A stretch of 38,512 nucleotides of DNA from a virus. This document shows positions 1 to 38,512 of this stretch, piece by piece; within the stretch, counting starts at the first letter, position 1; each line of letters opens with the position of its first letter. A program made the position numbers and the translations under genes. The stretch spans positions 1 through 38,512 of the IMG/VR virus record IMGVR_UViG_3300031578_000148. One strand, given 5' to 3'. Under the pieces are notes generated by a model that did not search any database, was not told where the DNA came from, and was given only the letters and a program-made list of their open reading frames with translations.

Positions 1-64
1 GCAGCAACAAAATTATTTGAATCAATTGTCAGGGTATTTTCCTAGAGAAAATTTAGGTATTTAG
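1..64 (+). CDS. 3' end of small virion protein gene (second copy of the end of 38006-38269)
   Basis: This is the last 20 codons plus stop of the 87-residue protein fully present at 38006-38269. It ends in the residues YFPRENLGI followed by TAG. It is cut by the window edge and not truly truncated, because the genome closes here. One synonymous change (TTG for CTG, Leu) distinguishes the two copies. Confidence 0.85.
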   Translation, partial: QQQNYLNQLSGYFPRENLGI

Positions 65-307
65 GGGTTAATATGGTGAATTTTTTGTCAAATATATTTG
101 AGAACTCTTTTTTTTCAGTTGGAAATTTAAACAATTTCAAAAATGCGTTAAATATTGTAAATGGCTTAGGAAACATGTTTGTTACTCAAAGGCAAAGATC
201 AGAGAATATTCAAAAATATTTTGCCCAAGCGCAACAATACGAAACCAGGGCTATGGAAGAAGACTACAAGTACAAGATGATTAATTCTACAATTTCCTTA
301 AAATCTG
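1..307. repeat. Terminal redundancy, left copy
   Basis: Bases 1-307 match 38206-38512 except at two positions: base 17 is T against C at 38222, and base 282 is T against A at 38487. The overlap means the sequence closes into a circle of about 38,205 bases, through circular permutation, terminal repeats or a circular assembly. Both differences are synonymous in the genes they fall in, which suggests true strain variation rather than random error. Confidence 0.95.
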
Positions 308-12553: not shown

Positions 12554-12597
12554 AGAAGCCCCGACTATAGCGCAAGCTTAGTCGCGGGAGTATTCAC
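12554..12597 (+). repeat. IS605/omega-RNA-type right-end hairpin, copy A
   Basis: A 44-base element identical to 16141-16184 at the end of tnpB. It folds as CGACTA paired with TAGTCG, extended outside by CCC/GGG with a bulged C and inside by AGC/GCT around a GCAA tetraloop. It ends in GAGTATTCAC. Such hairpins form the scaffold end of TnpB omega-RNAs and the right end of IS200/IS605-type elements. This copy is solitary, between the membrane protein gene and glyS. The bases after it (AGATAAAAAAATAG) would be its guide. ATTCAC at its end can also pair with GTGAAT at 12612-12617. Confidence 0.85.
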
Positions 12598-12618
12598 AGA
12601 TAAAAAAATAGTGAATTT

Positions 12619-14802
12619 ATGGGAACATTACTTTTTGAAATAGGCACCGACGATCTACCAAATTGGTGCCAAGAAATTATATCGCAAGAAATAAATTATA
12701 GTGAATACTTTGATCAAACATACAAAGAGTATCCTATTGTCTGTACAAAAGTATACACAACTCCTCGTCGGATTGCATTTCTGATAGATCTAAAATCTAA
12801 CATGACTAACGAAACCCCTATTTATGGCCCGTCGCATAATTTAATAAAAGATAAAGATGGGAATTATACACCCACAGCACACGGATTCGCCAAGAAATAC
12901 AGCGTATCTGTCGAAGATATACTTAAAGAAAATAATCTTGCATTCATCAAAATACCGTCAAAGCCCATCTTAGGGACAATACAAGAATTTTTAAAACAAA
13001 TATTAAATTTTATAAATGCTCAAATATATAAATTTGCCGAAAAAAAATATTTGTCTAATACTAATTCATTAATAATGCGCTGGGAACGCTCCAAAATAAA
13101 ATTTAATCGCCCAATTCGCTGGCTTGTCGCCATGTTGGACGACCAAGAAATAGATTTAAGCAATTTAGTAAAATCTCTTAATCTCAATTTGTTGAGTCCT
13201 AATTTTAAAACAACTTTTGGACATAGACTTATAACCAGTAATAAAAAAATAATAATAAATCATGCAAGTAACTACGAAAAATTACTACTAGATCATTATG
13301 TTATTTTAGACAATCAAAAAAGATTTACACATCTTGTTCAACAAATAAAAATCAAAAAAAAAATTAAATTTCAATGGGAACAGTTTGAGCGATCTAGTTT
13401 TCTCTCAACAGAATATCCAATTCTCGTTATAGGAAAATTCGATAAAAAATATCTCAAGTTACCTCCAGAATTAATTAATACTATACTTGTATTTCACCAA
13501 AAATGTTCTAGTGTCATAAATAATCAAAATGAATTAATTCCAGAATTTGCTTTCGTAATTGATTGTCAAAAATCAATAGAAGATGCAAATAAAAATCCAA
13601 ATATAATTAAACATCTTGAAAAAACTATTGGGGCTCGACTCGAAGATGGTTTATTTTTTTATAATAAAGATCTAGAGAATGGATTTAAACATTGGGAAGA
13701 AAAAATTAATAACCTGACTTTTTTGAAGGGACTTGGAACTTACGGAGACAGAATAAAGCGCCTATCTAATATTGTTAAAGCCCTTGAGAATATGATCCCC
13801 GATAAACAAATACAAGAAAACTTACAGCTTGCTATTAAATATTATAAATTGGATTTATGTTCGTATATCGTTGATGAATTTCCTGAATTGCAAGGTCAAA
13901 TAGGAGCGCATTATGTTGAAAAACTAAAAACCCTGCCAGATGATGTTATTGAGGCAATTAGAAATCAAAATAATCCTGGTTTTAATGATACTAATCGTTG
14001 GCTATGGCTCTTTGACGCCTTTGACACAATAGTTGGATGTTGGCTAATAGATGAAAAGCCTACAGGGTCTTCAGATTTATTCGGGTTGCGATCTAAAATT
14101 AAAGTGTTTTTTAATTTATTTATGGAAACAAATAACATTGTTAATACGAAATTCTTAGAAATGATTGATCTTAAAAAGATAGTGAGTGTTACTCTCAAAG
14201 AGTATAATTTTACAAAAGTAATGGCAAATAGCTTTATGAATAGTTATACAAATGATATATTAAAATATTTATTTAATTACTTTAAAAATTCATATGTTTT
14301 TCATGAAAACAGTAAAGAATTCAATATTATATATAATTCACTAGGGAAAAAATTTTCAAAAATAAGTAATTTTCACAACAGTCTTTCCGCTTTGATTAAT
14401 TTTTATGAAAAAAAAAATGGTGTTTCTGTCCAACAATTTGAAAAACTTGAAACAATACTAAGTAGATGTAGAAACATTTTATTAAAAAATAATTTATTTT
14501 CAAATCAAATTTGTATTGATGAAGCACTTTTCACTGAACCTGAAGAAAAAAATCTTTATAATGTGTATATATATTTATTTGAGAAATATTCTAATAATGA
14601 TATTCACGAAATGTCAGATTACGAAGAATTTTTAAATGATATGTGCGAATTGTTTGATCCAATTGAAAATTTCTTTAAAAATATTATCGTTATTTGTGAT
14701 GACGAAAAAATAAAAAACAATAGGTTAATGCTTTTGCAAAAAATATTTAACTTCACTTCGCAAGAAGACCCCGACTATAGCATAAGCTTAGTCGCGGGAT
14801 GA
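12619..14802 (+). CDS. glyS: Glycyl-tRNA synthetase beta subunit
   Basis: A 727-residue homologue of the bacterial GlyRS beta chain, which binds tRNA-Gly and works only with the alpha chain (GlyQ). Recognisable blocks: N-terminal LLFEIGTDDLP (family LxEIGTEELP), TPRRIAFL, GFAKKYSVSVEDI, MRW...FNRPIRWLV, GHRL, then RLEDGLFFYNKDL, LGTYGDRIKRL and EFPELQGQIGAHY. Near residue 480 the usual DPFALRR reads SDLFGLRSK, so it is divergent. No glyQ lies in the window, so it would need the host alpha subunit or do something else. The last 17 codons (from 14751) are made of hairpin repeat copy B. Arg codons CGC/CGT and Leu codons CTT/CTC are frequent, whereas the phage genes prefer AGA and TTA, suggesting recent capture from a bacterium. 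No clear ribosome-binding site precedes the ATG. Confidence 0.88.
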   Translation: MGTLLFEIGTDDLPNWCQEIISQEINYSEYFDQTYKEYPIVCTKVYTTPRRIAFLIDLKSNMTNETPIYGPSHNLIKDKDGNYTPTAHGFAKKYSVSVEDILKENNLAFIKIPSKPILGTIQEFLKQILNFINAQIYKFAEKKYLSNTNSLIMRWERSKIKFNRPIRWLVAMLDDQEIDLSNLVKSLNLNLLSPNFKTTFGHRLITSNKKIIINHASNYEKLLLDHYVILDNQKRFTHLVQQIKIKKKIKFQWEQFERSSFLSTEYPILVIGKFDKKYLKLPPELINTILVFHQKCSSVINNQNELIPEFAFVIDCQKSIEDANKNPNIIKHLEKTIGARLEDGLFFYNKDLENGFKHWEEKINNLTFLKGLGTYGDRIKRLSNIVKALENMIPDKQIQENLQLAIKYYKLDLCSYIVDEFPELQGQIGAHYVEKLKTLPDDVIEAIRNQNNPGFNDTNRWLWLFDAFDTIVGCWLIDEKPTGSSDLFGLRSKIKVFFNLFMETNNIVNTKFLEMIDLKKIVSVTLKEYNFTKVMANSFMNSYTNDILKYLFNYFKNSYVFHENSKEFNIIYNSLGKKFSKISNFHNSLSALINFYEKKNGVSVQQFEKLETILSRCRNILLKNNLFSNQICIDEALFTEPEEKNLYNVYIYLFEKYSNNDIHEMSDYEEFLNDMCELFDPIENFFKNIIVICDDEKIKNNRLMLLQKIFNFTSQEDPDYSISLVAG
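14751..14800 (+). repeat. IS605/omega-RNA-type hairpin, copy B (inside 3' end of glyS)
   Basis: The stem CGACTA/TAGTCG and the outer CCC/GGG are kept, but the tetraloop is ATAA instead of GCAA. It is preceded by CTTCACTTCGCAAGAAG, which can itself form CTTC-GCAA-GAAG, as in copy D. The usual ending GAGTATTCAC is replaced by GATGAATTGCG. It supplies the final codons and stop of glyS. Confidence 0.8.
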
Positions 14803-14932: not shown

Positions 14933-16168
14933 GTGCAAGTAGAATATGCTTTCTCATATAAATACCAGATTAGACCAACAAAAAGTCAGATTACAAAATT
15001 GGAAAATACTTTTAGTATGTGTCGCCATTTGTACAATTGGTATTTAAAAGAAAAAATTGAATTCTACGAAAACGAAAAAATATCAATTTCAAAATATGAT
15101 CAATTTAAAAAATTGCCACAATTAAAAATTGAACGTCCTCATTTTAAATTTGTACATTCACAAGTATTGCAAAATGTAATTGATAGAATGCATGTTGCGT
15201 ACAAAAACTTTTTTAGACGAGTAAAAGAAGCTAAATTACCAGCAAGTGAATATGGATTTCCAAAGTTTAAAAAACGTGGACAATGGAATTCAATTACATA
15301 TCCGCAATTTCGCTCAATTCCAAAAAATAAGTTAATCACTATTCCAAAAATTGGTGATATTAAAATGATATATCATCGCGATTTACCAGATAATTGTCAA
15401 ATTAAAACATTAACCATTGTTAAAGAAGGTCAAAAATGGTTCGTTTGTTTCTCTTTGATTGTAAAAAAATGTATCACAGAGCTTAAACAAACCTTTAACA
15501 ATGGAAAATTTGTTGGAATAGATTTAGGAATTTCTGAATTTTGGACAACATCGTCCAATGAAACTTGTGGTGAAACTATTGAATTTTTTACAAAATTAAA
15601 ACTTTTAGAAAAGAAAAAAGATAAAATCAATAAAAAATTATCGAAAATTCCAAAAAGAACTAAAAAATATTTAAAATTTCTTAGAATTCTTCAAAATTGC
15701 CATCACAAAATTAAATGTTTTCGAAATGATTTTTTGCATAAACAAGCTAACAAATTGTTGCAAATGTATGATTTAATCATCTTTGAAAGCTTAAATATTA
15801 AAAAAATGGTTCGTAGACCAAAGAAAAAACCTAATGATGATGGAAGTTTTGCTCCAAATGGTGCTAAAGAAAAATCGAAATTGAATAAAAAAATTCACAC
15901 ATTTTCTTGGGGTATTTTTTTAGAAATTCTAAAATATAAAGCAAAAATTTTTGGTAAACAAATTGTTGAGGTTAATCCATTTTTGACTTCGCAAAAGTGT
16001 TCTAATTGTGGAGAAATCATACGAAAAACTCTTTCAACAAGAACACATATGTGTAGTGAATGCGGTTTTGTCGCAAATAGAGACCATAACGCCGCTATAA
16101 ATATTTTGAGACTGGGGATACAGTCTTTGGGAATTTCCCTAGAAGCCCCGACTATAGCGCAAGCTTAG
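14933..16168 (+). CDS. tnpB: TnpB RNA-guided nuclease (IS200/IS605 OrfB family)
   Basis: A 411-residue TnpB, the ancestor-type of Cas12 nucleases, which uses an omega-RNA made from its own 3' end to cut DNA. All three RuvC acidic residues are present: Asp in FVGIDLGISEF (about residue 198), Glu in LIIFESLNIKKM (about 285), Asp in FVANRDHNAAINIL (about 382). A four-Cys zinc ribbon CSNCG...CSECG lies before the last. The N-terminal YKYQIRPTKSQITKLENTF helix is typical. The start is GTG at 14933 without a clear ribosome-binding site, common for tnpB. The last codons (EAPTIAQA) are the scaffold hairpin copy C. No tnpA transposase is present, so the element could not move on its own. Downstream is a guide region matching the phage tail gene. 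Confidence 0.93.
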   Translation: MQVEYAFSYKYQIRPTKSQITKLENTFSMCRHLYNWYLKEKIEFYENEKISISKYDQFKKLPQLKIERPHFKFVHSQVLQNVIDRMHVAYKNFFRRVKEAKLPASEYGFPKFKKRGQWNSITYPQFRSIPKNKLITIPKIGDIKMIYHRDLPDNCQIKTLTIVKEGQKWFVCFSLIVKKCITELKQTFNNGKFVGIDLGISEFWTTSSNETCGETIEFFTKLKLLEKKKDKINKKLSKIPKRTKKYLKFLRILQNCHHKIKCFRNDFLHKQANKLLQMYDLIIFESLNIKKMVRRPKKKPNDDGSFAPNGAKEKSKLNKKIHTFSWGIFLEILKYKAKIFGKQIVEVNPFLTSQKCSNCGEIIRKTLSTRTHMCSECGFVANRDHNAAINILRLGIQSLGISLEAPTIAQA

Positions 16169-16184
16169 TCGCGGGAGTATTCAC
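16141..16184 (+). ncRNA. omega-RNA scaffold 3' end (hairpin copy C), overlapping tnpB end
   Basis: The 44-base hairpin element, identical to copy A, covers the last codons of tnpB and ends at GAGTATTCAC (16184). In TnpB systems the RNA continues past this point, and the next 16-20 bases are the guide. The omega-RNA probably begins within tnpB, but its 5' end cannot be set from sequence. The stem has about 12 pairs with a GCAA tetraloop. Confidence 0.75.
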
Positions 16185-16218
16185 TCAGGCGATTAATTGG
16201 AATTGTTGTAGGGTTATC
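16185..16218 (+). other. Guide/spacer region with 29-base match to tail tubular A gene
   Basis: Bases 16186-16214 are identical to 34603-34631, inside the gene for tail tubular protein A, on the same strand. The first base after the scaffold (T at 16185) differs from the tail gene (C at 34602). Upstream of the match the tail gene reads GTTAT, resembling known TnpB target-adjacent motifs. A guide made here would recognise the phage's own, or a relative's, tail gene. Confidence 0.85.
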
Positions 16219-16274
16219 TTCACTTCGCAAGAAGACCCCGACTATAGCGCAAGCTTAGTCGCAGGAGTATTCAC
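16219..16274 (+). repeat. IS605/omega-RNA-type hairpin, copy D
   Basis: A second full scaffold-like copy 34 bases after copy C. It begins with the CTTCACTTCGCAAGAAG leader shared with copy B and ends in GAGTATTCAC. One change (GGG to AGG) weakens the outer stem; the inner CGACTA/TAGTCG stem and GCAA loop are intact. Confidence 0.85.
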
Positions 16275-16278
16275 AGTT

Positions 16279-16292
16279 CGGGGAGTATTCAC
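16279..16292 (+). repeat. Truncated right-end remnant, copy E
   Basis: CGGGGAGTATTCAC repeats only the last 14 bases of the element. It overlaps the stop codon of the thymidine kinase gene on the other strand. TATTCAC here can pair with GTGAATA directly after it. Confidence 0.65.
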
Positions 16293-20907: not shown

Positions 20908-20954
20908 GCCCCTTGGAATTGGTAGAAATGGCCTTACAATCCAATTTTTTTGAG
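20908..20954. terminator. Possible terminator between convergent genes
   Basis: AATTGG (20917-20922) can pair with CCAATT (20941-20946), followed by a run of T. AGGG/CCCT nearby makes a second short stem. The loop is long and the stems short, so this is only a weak candidate. Confidence 0.25.
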
Positions 20955-22466
20955 TTGAGATTGCGTTAACAATGCCGGGGTTGAAAGTTTTATTGTATTT
21001 AGAGAATCATTTTTATTTATTTTTATTGTTATGAAAAAAATATCTCCAACATTAAAATTTTCTACCCACTTTCCTTCTGCACAGAAAGTCTCTTCGTGAC
21101 CAGTAATGTCTAATCCATCTTTTAAAAGACTAGAATCTACAACTTTTATTTTTACTCTTTTGAAAAGTTTTTCGTTAATTTCTTTATGAAATTTATCAAT
21201 AATTTGAATTTTTATAATTGGGCGCGATTTTGAAGTGTCCTTCACAATTTTTTTTGGTTTATTTTTTACAGTTTTCGTTATATTTTTTTCGTGAAGTAGT
21301 TTTAATTGATGTAAACCTCTTCGTTTAATATTAATAGCAGCATTAATATCAGCGTTTATTTCAAATCCGCAATCAAGGCACTTGAAACTTTCATCAAATT
21401 TAACACGATTTTCAATATTTCGCTGACGGCAATTGGAACAGGTCAAGCTTGTGAATTCTTTTCTAACTTCAACTGTTATTATTTTATGGTTTTCGGCTAC
21501 TTTTTTAAATTTTTCATGAAATTTTTTAATAATATATATTTTATTTTTTGGTAAAATTGAATCTTCGTTTATTTGTTTACCAAAATTATTTTGTAAATCT
21601 GAAAAAATATTTTTCTCATAGAAAATTAAATTAAAGTTTTTTGTGTAATTAACTAAATCTTTCAAGAATTTTTTTTTCATTTCTCGGACAACATACAGAT
21701 TGTGTTCTGATTTTAACTTTAAGTTAACTAAAGTTTCATTAGCGAAAAATTCTTTACGATCAAGAAGACTATTTTGATTAAGGGTTTCCTTTATGTCATA
21801 AAATTCAGTCAATAGCTCTGCTTCTTTTTTTGAATCATAAGAAAATATTTTACCATCACTAAATGTAGCCGTGTTTCTATATCCTAAATCCATCGCCACA
21901 CAATGAATTTCTCTAGACGGAGTTATTTCGTCTACGGTTTTGACCGAAAATACTTGTATTTTGAAATTTTTAGAAAAAGTATTAACCAATTTAACTTTGT
22001 ATGCAGGACATAAAGAAATATTTTCATTATTTTTAAATTTAATATTTTTAATCTTTGAAAGATCAATTGTGTTATTTGAGAAATCAATTTTAAAGTTTTT
22101 TTTATAGGTTACACCTTCACATGCGAAAAGACTTTTAAGCATAGGGGGATTAAAGTGGGACGGGTTTTTTCTAGAAGATTCAATTGCAGTTATAATTTCA
22201 GTGAAAAAATCGCTATATTCATGCTTAGTGAAACATCTTGTAACGGCATTTGGGTTTTTAAAAAAAGGATTGGTACCATGCCAGTAAAATCTTTTACACT
22301 GGTAGCGAAAAGCACCCATTGTTATTTCGGTATTCTTGTGAAAAATTTTGATCAATTGATTCCGAATGTAACTATAATCCTTGATAATTGAATATACTTC
22401 TTTAAATTTTTCTTCGTCTAAATCTAAATCAAATTCTTTACTAAAAAAAATTGCTTTTTTAATCAT
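20934..22466 (-). CDS. Divergent TnpB-like (Cas12-related) nuclease with C-terminal extension
   Basis: A 510-residue protein with the RuvC/zinc-ribbon core of TnpB and Cas12. Asp in VAMDLGYRNTATF (about residue 193), Glu in LIFYEKNIFSDL (about 285), and Asp in FEINADINAAINIKRRG (about 377) form the DED triad. CSNC and CLDC form the zinc ribbon. The N-terminal ~185 residues do not resemble ordinary TnpB, and about 120 residues follow the last motif, where ordinary TnpB ends within about 30. The gene is last in a five-gene operon and overlaps the upstream HNH gene by 8 bases. No copy of the hairpin repeat lies near it, so any guide RNA must differ from that of the TnpB at 14933. It may be a domesticated RNA-guided nuclease; cleavage of competitor or host DNA is inference. 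Confidence 0.8.
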   Translation of the reverse strand: MIKKAIFFSKEFDLDLDEEKFKEVYSIIKDYSYIRNQLIKIFHKNTEITMGAFRYQCKRFYWHGTNPFFKNPNAVTRCFTKHEYSDFFTEIITAIESSRKNPSHFNPPMLKSLFACEGVTYKKNFKIDFSNNTIDLSKIKNIKFKNNENISLCPAYKVKLVNTFSKNFKIQVFSVKTVDEITPSREIHCVAMDLGYRNTATFSDGKIFSYDSKKEAELLTEFYDIKETLNQNSLLDRKEFFANETLVNLKLKSEHNLYVVREMKKKFLKDLVNYTKNFNLIFYEKNIFSDLQNNFGKQINEDSILPKNKIYIIKKFHEKFKKVAENHKIITVEVRKEFTSLTCSNCRQRNIENRVKFDESFKCLDCGFEINADINAAINIKRRGLHQLKLLHEKNITKTVKNKPKKIVKDTSKSRPIIKIQIIDKFHKEINEKLFKRVKIKVVDSSLLKDGLDITGHEETFCAEGKWVENFNVGDIFFITIKINKNDSLNTIKLSTPALLTQSQLKKIGL

Positions 22467-23975: not shown

Positions 23976-24032
23976 GTGAATATTTTAAATTCACAAGAAG
24001 ACCACGACTATAGCACACAGCTTAGTCGCGGA
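23976..24032 (+). repeat. IS605/omega-RNA-type hairpin, copy F (diverged)
   Basis: The CGACTA/TAGTCG stem and inner AGC/GCT pairs are intact, but the loop is ACACA instead of GCAA and one C of the outer stem is A. It is preceded by GTGAAT (23976-23981), which can pair with ATTCAC (23989-23994), and followed by the palindrome AAGCAATTGCTT (24032-24043). It has the same orientation as the other copies and lies between two - strand genes. Confidence 0.75.
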
Positions 24033-34151: not shown

Positions 34152-34453
34152 TGATATTACCAAAAAGAAGTGCAGACGGAATTTGGTTTTATGAGATAAA
34201 GCAAACTGGAGATTTTGGAATTGATCTTTTTGTTAATTCGCATGAATCGTTTTGGGGAGTTAATCAAAGTGGATGTATTATCGCAGCAACGCTACTTTTA
34301 GAAAATAAAACGAAGTCTATTTTTATAGATAATTTAGATTTAAATAAAAATGCATTTGTTTCTTTTCCTATAAGGGCTAAAAATTATTATGTTAGGTTTG
34401 AATGTGTCTTATTGACAGTAGATACTAATTTCATGTTTTGGATGGGGCAATGA
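34151..34453 (+). CDS. Small beta-rich structural protein 5
   Basis: A 100-residue protein, last of the series, linked by one-base overlaps on the left and ATGA on the right. It has the central FWGVNQSGCIIAATLLLENK and a C-terminal strand pair. No family recognised; position next to tail tubular A suggests head or neck. Confidence 0.5.
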   Translation: MILPKRSADGIWFYEIKQTGDFGIDLFVNSHESFWGVNQSGCIIAATLLLENKTKSIFIDNLDLNKNAFVSFPIRAKNYYVRFECVLLTVDTNFMFWMGQ

Positions 34454-35082
34454 CTGGAGCAAGCAGAGAAGCAATTTATAAAAAAGCATTGGTTAGCGCT
34501 GGGTTAAGCGTTTATGATTCGTCAGAAACATCGGGTTATACAAATAATGAAATGCTAAGTTTTTTAGAGACAGCTTATGATTTAGCTTATGATAATGTTA
34601 TCCAGGCGATTAATTGGAATTGTTGTAGGGTCATAAAAAACTTCACTGAATTAAGCGAAACAACAAAATATGGTTACAGTTTTGTATATCAGGTCCCAGT
34701 TGATTGTTATAGAATTTTATATAATTCAAATCAATTGCAGTCCAGTAGTGGCAATTATACATATTTTTCGCAAGGATACAACACAAACTATGCTCCGATA
34801 GATTTCAAAAGAATAAAAGACAAATTATATACGATGGTTGAATTAGGCGAAGTTGAGTATATAGCATTCATAGAACCAAATCAAATGAGCAAAAATTTTG
34901 AATCAGCTTTAGTAGCGTCAATTGCAATGTTTTTAGTTCAAAGATATAAAACGGATTTAGTTTACATAAAGGAAAAAGAATATAATTTGATTTTGTCAAA
35001 AGCAAAAAGCACAGAAGGTATGCAAGCAATCAAAGGTGTTCCAACAAGGTATTCAGTTATGGATTACGAAGGAGTGTTGTAG
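34450..35082 (+). CDS. Tail tubular protein A (head-tail adaptor, gp11-like); holds TnpB guide match
   Basis: A 210-residue adaptor that joins the portal to the tail tube. It starts at ATG 34450 (ATGA overlap, GGGG upstream), is helical at the N-terminus (REAIYKKALVSAGL), has the family-type aromatic segment NVIQAINWNCCRVIKNF near residues 51-67 and ends with RYSVMDYEGVL. The gene precedes a 863-residue tail tube protein, as in T7 (gp11-gp12). Bases 34603-34631 are identical to the guide region after the tnpB scaffold at 16186-16214, in the codons for the conserved NVIQAINWN segment. Any TnpB cut here would disable tail assembly. Confidence 0.8.
   Translation: MTGASREAIYKKALVSAGLSVYDSSETSGYTNNEMLSFLETAYDLAYDNVIQAINWNCCRVIKNFTELSETTKYGYSFVYQVPVDCYRILYNSNQLQSSSGNYTYFSQGYNTNYAPIDFKRIKDKLYTMVELGEVEYIAFIEPNQMSKNFESALVASIAMFLVQRYKTDLVYIKEKEYNLILSKAKSTEGMQAIKGVPTRYSVMDYEGVL
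34602..34631 (+). other. Candidate TnpB target (protospacer) in tail gene
   Basis: 29 bases (34603-34631) match the guide region 16186-16214 exactly; base 34602 is C against T in the guide. The upstream bases are GTTAT, similar to T-rich target-adjacent motifs of known TnpB proteins. Whether TnpB can use it is not known. Confidence 0.75.
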
Positions 35083-38005: not shown

Positions 38006-38269
38006 ATGCAATTGGCAAGTTTAAGCACATTAGGATTGGTTTCAGGCGCACTTAATTTGGCATCGTCACTTTTTGGTTCAAAACCAAAAGCACCAAAAAT
38101 TCAAAAGCAGCCACTAGTTAGTAGCTCAACGGTTCCAAACGTAGATATACAAAGGAGGGTTGGGCTTTCTGGGTTTGGGTCATTGGTAGATCAAAACATT
38201 TTTAAGCAGCAACAAAATTATCTGAATCAATTGTCAGGGTATTTTCCTAGAGAAAATTTAGGTATTTAG
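38006..38269 (+). CDS. Small virion-associated protein
   Basis: An 87-residue protein starting at ATG with an excellent AGGAGA site. The N-terminal 25 residues are hydrophobic and small (LASLSTLGLVSGALNLASSLFG), followed by a Lys/Pro-rich part and a Gln-rich end. It precedes the gp14-like gene with 8 bases between and seems to be part of the ejectosome set. Its 3' end (38206-38269) is repeated at bases 1-64. Confidence 0.6.
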   Translation: MQLASLSTLGLVSGALNLASSLFGSKPKAPKIQKQPLVSSSTVPNVDIQRRVGLSGFGSLVDQNIFKQQQNYLNQLSGYFPRENLGI

Positions 38270-38512
38270 GGGTTAATATGGTGAATTTTTTGTCAAATAT
38301 ATTTGAGAACTCTTTTTTTTCAGTTGGAAATTTAAACAATTTCAAAAATGCGTTAAATATTGTAAATGGCTTAGGAAACATGTTTGTTACTCAAAGGCAA
38401 AGATCAGAGAATATTCAAAAATATTTTGCCCAAGCGCAACAATACGAAACCAGGGCTATGGAAGAAGACTACAAGTACAAGATGATAAATTCTACAATTT
38501 CCTTAAAATCTG
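38206..38512. repeat. Terminal redundancy, right copy
   Basis: Right copy of the overlap with 1-307 (two mismatches). It contains the end of the 87-residue protein gene and the first 78 codons of the gp14-like gene (38278-38512, cut by the window). Confidence 0.95.
38278..38512 (+). CDS. 5' part of internal virion protein gene (second copy of 73-307)
   Basis: First 78 codons of the 173-residue gp14-like protein, cut by the window end. One base differs from the left copy (ATA for ATT, both Ile). Confidence 0.85.
   Translation, partial: MVNFLSNIFENSFFSVGNLNNFKNALNIVNGLGNMFVTQRQRSENIQKYFAQAQQYETRAMEEDYKYKMINSTISLKS

What the first reader, a model, noticed from the sequence alone, without database searches (positions are those of the whole stretch)
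16141..16292. TnpB guide region matches the phage's own tail tubular A gene over 29 bases
Seen: directly after the scaffold hairpin that ends tnpB (16184), bases 16186-16214 are identical to 34603-34631 on the same strand, inside the head-tail adaptor gene. A 29-base chance match exactly where a TnpB guide should sit is very unlikely. Known: TnpB uses the bases after its right end as guide, and cuts targets next to a short T-rich motif. The tail site is preceded by GTTAT. Inference: the phage carries an RNA-guided nuclease programmed against a tail gene, either its own (regulation or self-limitation) or that of competing relatives (inter-phage weapon or homing). The first guide base mismatch (T/C) or a wrong adjacent motif may spare its own copy.
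Basis: partly seen in the sequence, partly recalled or inferred. Interest (0 to 1): 0.93.

Follow-up and report, generated by a model that had tools for sequence, protein, structure and literature searches.

The report
Phage TnpB guide matches tail gene
A small bacterial virus carries a transposon-type RNA-guided DNA cutter whose guide sequence matches the virus's own tail gene next to a plausible cutting signal, most likely because the transposon once sat in that gene in this virus or a close relative and kept a piece of it when it moved; whether it now cuts rival or sister viruses is untested.

Summary
Bases 16186-16214 equal 34603-34631 exactly. Over the 33 nt 16185-16217 there are two mismatches, both synonymous third-codon changes in the tail gene. 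Chance is about 2e-11. A covariance model built from 15 relatives, without this sequence, finds the complete omegaRNA scaffold at 16099-16184 (E about 4e-14), ending exactly where the match begins, so the match does occupy the guide position. TnpB keeps D/E/D and the zinc ribbon.

Relatives give the adjacent motif: the same element at two sites, and a disrupted xseA gene, both show TTTAT; the window's own ends follow GTTAT and TTTAA. The tail site follows GTTAT, so the motif is plausible rather than wrong.

New anatomy: 14751-14802 is the element's left end. The 33-nt flank ends exactly at a second GTTAT, followed by a hybrid left/right end (16218-16274). Best reading: an IS200/IS605-type tnpB-only element recorded a former insertion in a tail-gene allele and moved with that flank, so its guide no longer matches its location but still points at the tail gene. 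It could cut uninserted tail alleles of relatives, and its own copy less well (U.G at position 1). Activity, expression and relatives of the phage are not shown. Weapon or regulation remains unproven.

The parts
14746..14750 (+). TTTAA, motif immediately left of the element's left end
   Evidence: Sequence. Position fixed by the 31-bp identity of the left end with 16218-16248 and by the left ends of BuS5, L032 and L068/L069.
14751..14802 (+). Left end (LE) hairpin of the tnpB element; it also supplies the last codons and stop of the glyS ORF (ends 14802)
   Evidence: Parallel to the BuS5 left end GAAGACCCC...GGATGAATCGGC, with outer stem CGCAA/TTGCG.
14933..16168 (+). tnpB, 411 aa, RuvC D197/E285/D384 and four zinc-ribbon cysteines
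   Evidence: Pfam PF07282, PF01385, PF12323. 52% identical to BuS5 TnpB with these residues invariant. ISDra2 TnpB 8bf8 E 7e-31. No Y1 tnpA in the record.
16099..16184 (+). omegaRNA scaffold: three hairpins ending ...GGGAGTATTCAC (right end, RE)
   Evidence: Covariance model built without the window: 66.5 bits, E 4.2e-14. 11 of 14 pairs have compensatory changes. Fold z = -3.96.
16185..16217 (+). Guide and retained flank, 33 nt derived from a tail-gene allele; its last 5 nt GTTAT (16213-16217) are the motif for the next end
   Evidence: 31/33 identical to 34602-34634, both differences synonymous.
16218..16274 (+). Hybrid end: left-end first half (31 bp identical to 14751-14781) joined to right-end second half (...GGAGTATTCAC); lacks hairpins 1 and 2, so not a full guide scaffold
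   Evidence: No comparable second end downstream of the RE in 62 relatives.
16277..16292 (+). Fragment of a further right end, TTCGGGGAGTATTCAC
34597..34601 (+). GTTAT, adjacent motif of the predicted target in the tail gene
   Evidence: Sequence. Compare TTTAT in relatives and GTTAT before 16218.
34602..34634 (+). Predicted target inside the tail-protein gene 34438-35082
12554..12597 (+). Solo right-end hairpin, 44 bp identical to 16141-16184, 21 nt before the glyS start; no complete scaffold
   Evidence: weak CM hit only, 16.9 bits.
23981..24029 (+). Degenerate left-end-like hairpin, no tnpB of this type attached

Best explanation
This is an IS200/IS605-type element with tnpB but no tnpA. 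Its guide is a relic of an earlier insertion at GTTAT in the tail gene, in a closely related phage or an ancestral allele. The element later moved, or was recombined, to the 3' end of glyS together with 33 nt of tail-gene flank, because a second, hybrid transposon end now bounds that flank. The guide is therefore fixed inside the mobile unit and no longer reflects where the element sits. Shown: scaffold, guide position, target identity, motif, intact catalytic residues, hybrid end. Inferred: transcription of the omegaRNA, cleavage, and the route of relocation. Expected behaviour: TnpB-omegaRNA cuts uninserted tail alleles that have KTTAW followed by TCAGGCGATTAATTGG, fully matched in relatives with the ATT codon and, with a U.G pair at position 1, more weakly in its own tail gene. 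In mixed infections this would act as interference or biased recombination against relatives, as a side effect of transposon memory.
For: Match and synonymous differences. Independent scaffold call ending at the guide boundary and covariation. TTTAT at two sites of one element with the same GAGTATTCAC end, and in the xseA gene of BuS5, which reads through when the element is skipped. GTTAT directly before 34602 and before 16218, TTTAA before 14751. Catalytic residues and zinc ribbon. A guide normally has no second match in its own phage: 38 of 39 kin records show none at E < 0.01. Published basis: ISDra2 TnpB uses the right-end flank as guide, cuts the donor joint, and could act at ectopic sites with TAM and guide match (PMC8612924). 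TnpB acts as a gene drive in multicopy plasmids (PMC11870625).
Against: No relative phage with the other tail allele or with an element in the tail gene was found, so the donor allele is hypothetical. Two insertions 33 bp apart, or an unusual strand transfer, must be assumed. No tnpA here. The motif at the tail site is GTTAT, not TTTAT. Published TnpBs can be sensitive to a mismatch at positions 1-13 (PMC11061315), at position 1 with a weak motif (PMC11043419), or within positions 1-4 (PMC12803034). No expression data.
Confidence: 0.6

Rival explanations
1. Inert scar: the flank and ends are debris of transposition and recombination; TnpB is not expressed, or does not cut at this site, in the present phage.
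For: Several decayed ends lie around it. No tnpA. Own tail gene intact despite a near-perfect match, as expected if cutting does not occur.
Against: tnpB frame and all catalytic residues intact. Scaffold structure intact. Ends 44 and 31 bp identical, so recent.
Confidence: 0.25
2. Selected inter-phage weapon or gene drive: the tail-targeting guide is kept because it cuts the tail gene of co-infecting relatives while its own copy is partly protected by the synonymous C at 34602.
For: Target with plausible motif. Own copy differs at guide position 1 by a silent change. Guide held between transposon ends, unique among 63 loci checked. Precedents: an intron endonuclease in phage PhiPA3 mediates competition (PMC11620839) and TnpB drives in plasmids (PMC11870625).
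Against: No sign of selection can be measured without relatives. A silent T/C difference is also what drift gives. U.G at position 1 may be tolerated.
Confidence: 0.1
3. RNA-guided repressor of the tail gene (TldR-like), binding without cutting.
For: TldR proteins are phage-encoded TnpB derivatives with guides to a specific gene (PMC13418256).
Against: RuvC D/E/D intact, whereas TldRs are nuclease-dead (own knowledge). Target is 164 nt inside the coding region, not at a promoter.
Confidence: 0.03
4. Chance match or assembly artefact.
For: A single metagenomic record, no reads available.
Against: P about 2e-11 for chance. The copies differ at two silent sites and the junctions fall exactly on motif and transposon end, which chimeric assembly would not be expected to produce.
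Confidence: 0.02

Closest known systems
IS200/IS605 tnpB elements with omegaRNA/reRNA (ISDra2 TnpB and orphan tnpB 'IS1341-type' elements)
   Same: TnpB domains and catalytic residues, three-hairpin scaffold overlapping the end of tnpB, T-rich motif, guide taken from the right flank, LE/RE hairpins.
   Different: No tnpA in the record. The guide matches a different gene of the same genome and is bounded by a second hybrid end, so guide and location are uncoupled.
TnpB gene drive of insertion sequences in multicopy replicons (PMC11870625)
   Same: Guide recording an insertion site would cut element-free copies of that site.
   Different: Here the element is no longer at the recorded site, so a cut would not be repaired by copying the element in.
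Phage homing endonucleases and interference competition (PhiPA3 intron endonuclease, PMC11620839)
   Same: A mobile-element nuclease able to cut a conserved gene of relatives in co-infection (predicted here).
   Different: RNA-guided, located about 18 kb from the target gene, effect not shown.
TldR, nuclease-dead TnpB-like repressors of phages (PMC13418256)
   Same: Phage-borne TnpB relative with a gene-specific guide.
   Different: Catalytic residues intact; target inside a structural gene of the phage itself.
CRISPR-Cas12 arrays
   Same: Superficial repeat-spacer-repeat layout (scaffold hairpin, 33 nt, hairpin).
   Different: One spacer only, the second 'repeat' is a hybrid transposon end lacking hairpins 1-2, no adaptation genes seen.

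Membership tests
IS200/IS605-type tnpB (TnpB-omegaRNA) element | TnpB domains with RuvC D/E/D and zinc ribbon | tested here: met
IS200/IS605-type tnpB (TnpB-omegaRNA) element | Structured omegaRNA scaffold overlapping the 3' end of tnpB and ending at the right end | tested here: met
   (model trained without the window).
IS200/IS605-type tnpB (TnpB-omegaRNA) element | Left- and right-end hairpins with T-rich motif left of the element | tested here: met
IS200/IS605-type tnpB (TnpB-omegaRNA) element | Guide equals the flank of the current insertion site | tested here: inconclusive
   The flank is physically adjacent, but it derives from the tail gene and ends at another transposon end; no empty site is available.
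IS200/IS605-type tnpB (TnpB-omegaRNA) element | Y1 transposase tnpA (autonomous elements only) | tested here: not met
   many known tnpB elements also lack it (own knowledge).
IS200/IS605-type tnpB (TnpB-omegaRNA) element | RNA-guided cleavage activity | not testable with these tools
   Needs biochemistry.
TldR RNA-guided repressor | Degenerate RuvC active site | tested here: not met
   D197, E285, D384 invariant in the alignment with TnpB relatives and in register with ISDra2 TnpB.
CRISPR-Cas12 | Array of identical repeats with several spacers | tested here: not met
   Only one complete scaffold; other copies are partial ends.
Homing endonuclease / gene drive | Nuclease gene inserted at, or beside, its own target site | tested here: not met
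   tnpB at 14.9-16.2 kb, target at 34.6 kb.

The most novel reading that the evidence does not exclude
A natural TnpB whose guide has been locked between transposon ends, so that it is inherited independently of insertion site and targets a conserved tail gene of related phages: an RNA-guided phage-phage interference module arising directly from an insertion sequence, and a possible intermediate between insertion-site guides and fixed guides.
Probability: 0.15. Interest if true: 0.85.

Novelty: new variant of a known kind. Interest (0 to 1): 0.6.

Why it matters
TnpB guides are thought to point at the element's own empty site. Here the guide points, with a plausible motif, at an essential-looking structural gene elsewhere in the same small phage genome. 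If active, it shows how a transposon nuclease can become a heritable weapon or liability without dedicated guide-acquisition machinery, and it gives a direct test of whether phage-borne TnpBs shape tail-gene exchange between relatives. If inactive, it is still a readable fossil of a tail-gene insertion.

Tried and rejected
Relatives of this phage: terminase, tail proteins, TnpB alone and the guide in viral contigs and the tail protein in phages gave none; the portal gave only about 20%-identical Vibrio/Alteromonas phages. A degenerate search for the AINWNCC-coding DNA found only chance hits outside tail genes. The scaffold loop pattern in viral contigs gave chance hits unrelated to TnpB and nothing in genome contigs. 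TnpB alignment A1 in genome contigs found nothing, probably because the chosen peptides were too narrow. The genome search 'relatives' and 'of' are not available for a virus record. My first idea, that CTTCAC at 16218 was tail-gene sequence with a 6-nt gap, was dropped once left ends from relatives showed it to be the start of a transposon end. My first idea that TTCAC is the motif was also dropped: TTCAC is the right-end terminus, and TTTAT is the motif in relatives. Rfam found nothing. Solo ends at 12554 and 16218 as extra guide RNAs: rejected, because they lack hairpins 1 and 2.

Full report
OBSERVATION. The repeat is real: 16186-16214 and 34603-34631 are identical over 29 bases on the same strand. 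Extended to the nearest sensible boundaries (16185-16217 against 34602-34634) the two agree at 31 of 33 positions. The two differences, T/C at 16185 and T/C at 16215, are both at third codon positions of the tail gene and silent (IQAINWNCCRV in both). With the base composition of this genome, 29 identical bases to a given guide are expected by chance 2e-11 times. The only longer repeats are the contig ends, which repeat over about 307 bp with two mismatches, and the transposon-end hairpins; one other, local, repeat (26667/26754) is also 29 bp.

WHAT SITS THERE. ORF 14933-16168 is a TnpB of 411 residues: Pfam Cas12f1-like TNB, OrfB_IS605 and HTH, phmmer to ISDra2 TnpB 8bf8 (E 7e-31). The RuvC residues D197, E285 and D384 and the four zinc-ribbon cysteines are invariant in an alignment with five relatives. 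The closest relatives are on a Desulfosarcina sp. BuS5 plasmid (52% identical) and in a 238-kb virus contig, L032 (53%). The record holds no Y1 transposase.

GUIDE POSITION. The 3' ends of tnpB in relatives fold into three consecutive hairpins followed by GAGYAKTCAC. In 17 aligned sequences, 11 of 14 consensus pairs show compensatory double changes. A covariance model built from 15 relatives without this window finds a single complete scaffold here, 16099-16184, 66.5 bits, E 4.2e-14, and the same RNA behind nearly all other relatives tested. So 16185 is the first base after the scaffold, and the tail match does lie in the guide.

ADJACENT MOTIF. L068 and L069 carry the same element (99.8% identical) at two different sites. 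The shared sequence begins with TTTAT and ends with GAGTATTCAC, the same right terminus as here. In BuS5 the element interrupts xseA; skipping it joins TTTAT to TTGGCTGATTCT and restores the frame ...FKIYL-ADSTVQG. L032 has TTTAT before a left end starting CTTCCCC. In the window, the left-end sequence CTTCACTTCGCAAGAAGACCCC occurs twice, preceded by TTTAA (14746-14750) and by GTTAT (16213-16217). The tail target is preceded by GTTAT (34597-34601). The motif is therefore plausible. It differs from TTTAT only in its first base and equals one that precedes an end of this family in the window.

By comparison with BuS5, 14751-14802 is the left end, with an outer stem CGCAA/TTGCG; it overlaps the end of the glyS ORF. 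The copy at 16218-16274 begins as a left end (31 bp identical to 14751) and finishes as a right end, a left/right hybrid as expected from recombination between the two hairpins of one element. A further right-end fragment lies at 16277-16292, a solo right end at 12554-12597 and a degenerate left end at 23981-24029. The 33-nt flank thus lies exactly between a right end and a motif-plus-left-end junction. None of the 62 relatives checked has a comparable second end downstream of its right end.

HOW IT PROBABLY AROSE AND WORKS. In IS200/IS605 elements the guide is the right flank of the insertion site, and TnpB cuts the vacated donor joint; action at ectopic matching sites was proposed by Karvelis et al. 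(PMC8612924). The simplest reading is that an element was once inserted at GTTAT in a tail-gene allele carrying ATT and GTT codons (a relative, or an ancestor of this phage), and that a unit ending at the hybrid end later arrived at the glyS locus. This fixes a tail-gene guide inside the mobile unit. Its own tail gene would pair everywhere in the guide except position 1, where guide U faces target-strand G. Published TnpBs range from strongly impaired by single mismatches at positions 1-13 (PMC11061315) or by mismatches within positions 1-4 (PMC12803034), to tolerant when the motif is strong (PMC11043419), so self-cutting cannot be predicted. TnpB drives insertion sequences through multicopy plasmids (PMC11870625), and an intron nuclease in phage PhiPA3 contributes to competition in co-infection (PMC11620839). 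An effect on co-infecting relatives is possible but not shown.

HOW UNUSUAL. I searched the guides of 53 relatives in one query against 39 virus records. Every record showed its own flank. Only one showed a second match of its own guide at E < 0.01: L100's record, 28 nt at 89%, with the first 20 nt exact and preceded by TTTAC. That site appears to belong to a dispersed intergenic repeat, so it is ambiguous. Many of these records are fragments. A guide matching a coding gene of its own phage is therefore rare in this family.

LIMITS. No relative of this phage was found in any searched collection, so the donor allele, the order of events and any selection are inferred. Expression and cleavage are untested. 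The host is unknown.

VERDICT. Confirmed observation; partly supported interpretation; a new variant of a known kind (a tnpB element whose guide is uncoupled from its location), worth a simple cleavage assay.

Noticed in passing
window 12554-14802: A glycyl-tRNA synthetase beta-subunit gene (727 aa) lies in a 38-kb podovirus-like genome, bracketed by a solo right end 21 nt before its start and a left end that supplies its stop codon. GC skew drops to about zero there, suggesting a host gene carried in between transposon ends.
   Followed up: partly
window 20934-22466 (-): A second, very diverged TnpB-like protein (510 aa, TNB domain, D/E/D residues apparently present, C-terminal extension); no scaffold of the first type was found near it.
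   Followed up: partly
L100 5122-5151 and L112 (G036:12749-12776, minus strand): Another phage's TnpB guide has an exact 20-nt second match preceded by TTTAC in its own genome, after which the sequence is displaced by about 195 bp relative to the guide flank. It may be a dispersed intergenic repeat, or a scar at a TnpB cut position.
   Followed up: partly
window 1-307 and 38206-38512: The contig ends repeat each other over about 307 bp with two mismatches, so the record is probably a complete genome with terminal redundancy or a circular map.
   Followed up: no
window 23981-24029: Degenerate left-end-like hairpin without tnpB, possibly an older insertion.
   Followed up: no
window 16277-16292: Fragment of a third right end directly after the hybrid end; the locus seems to have received elements repeatedly.
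   Followed up: no
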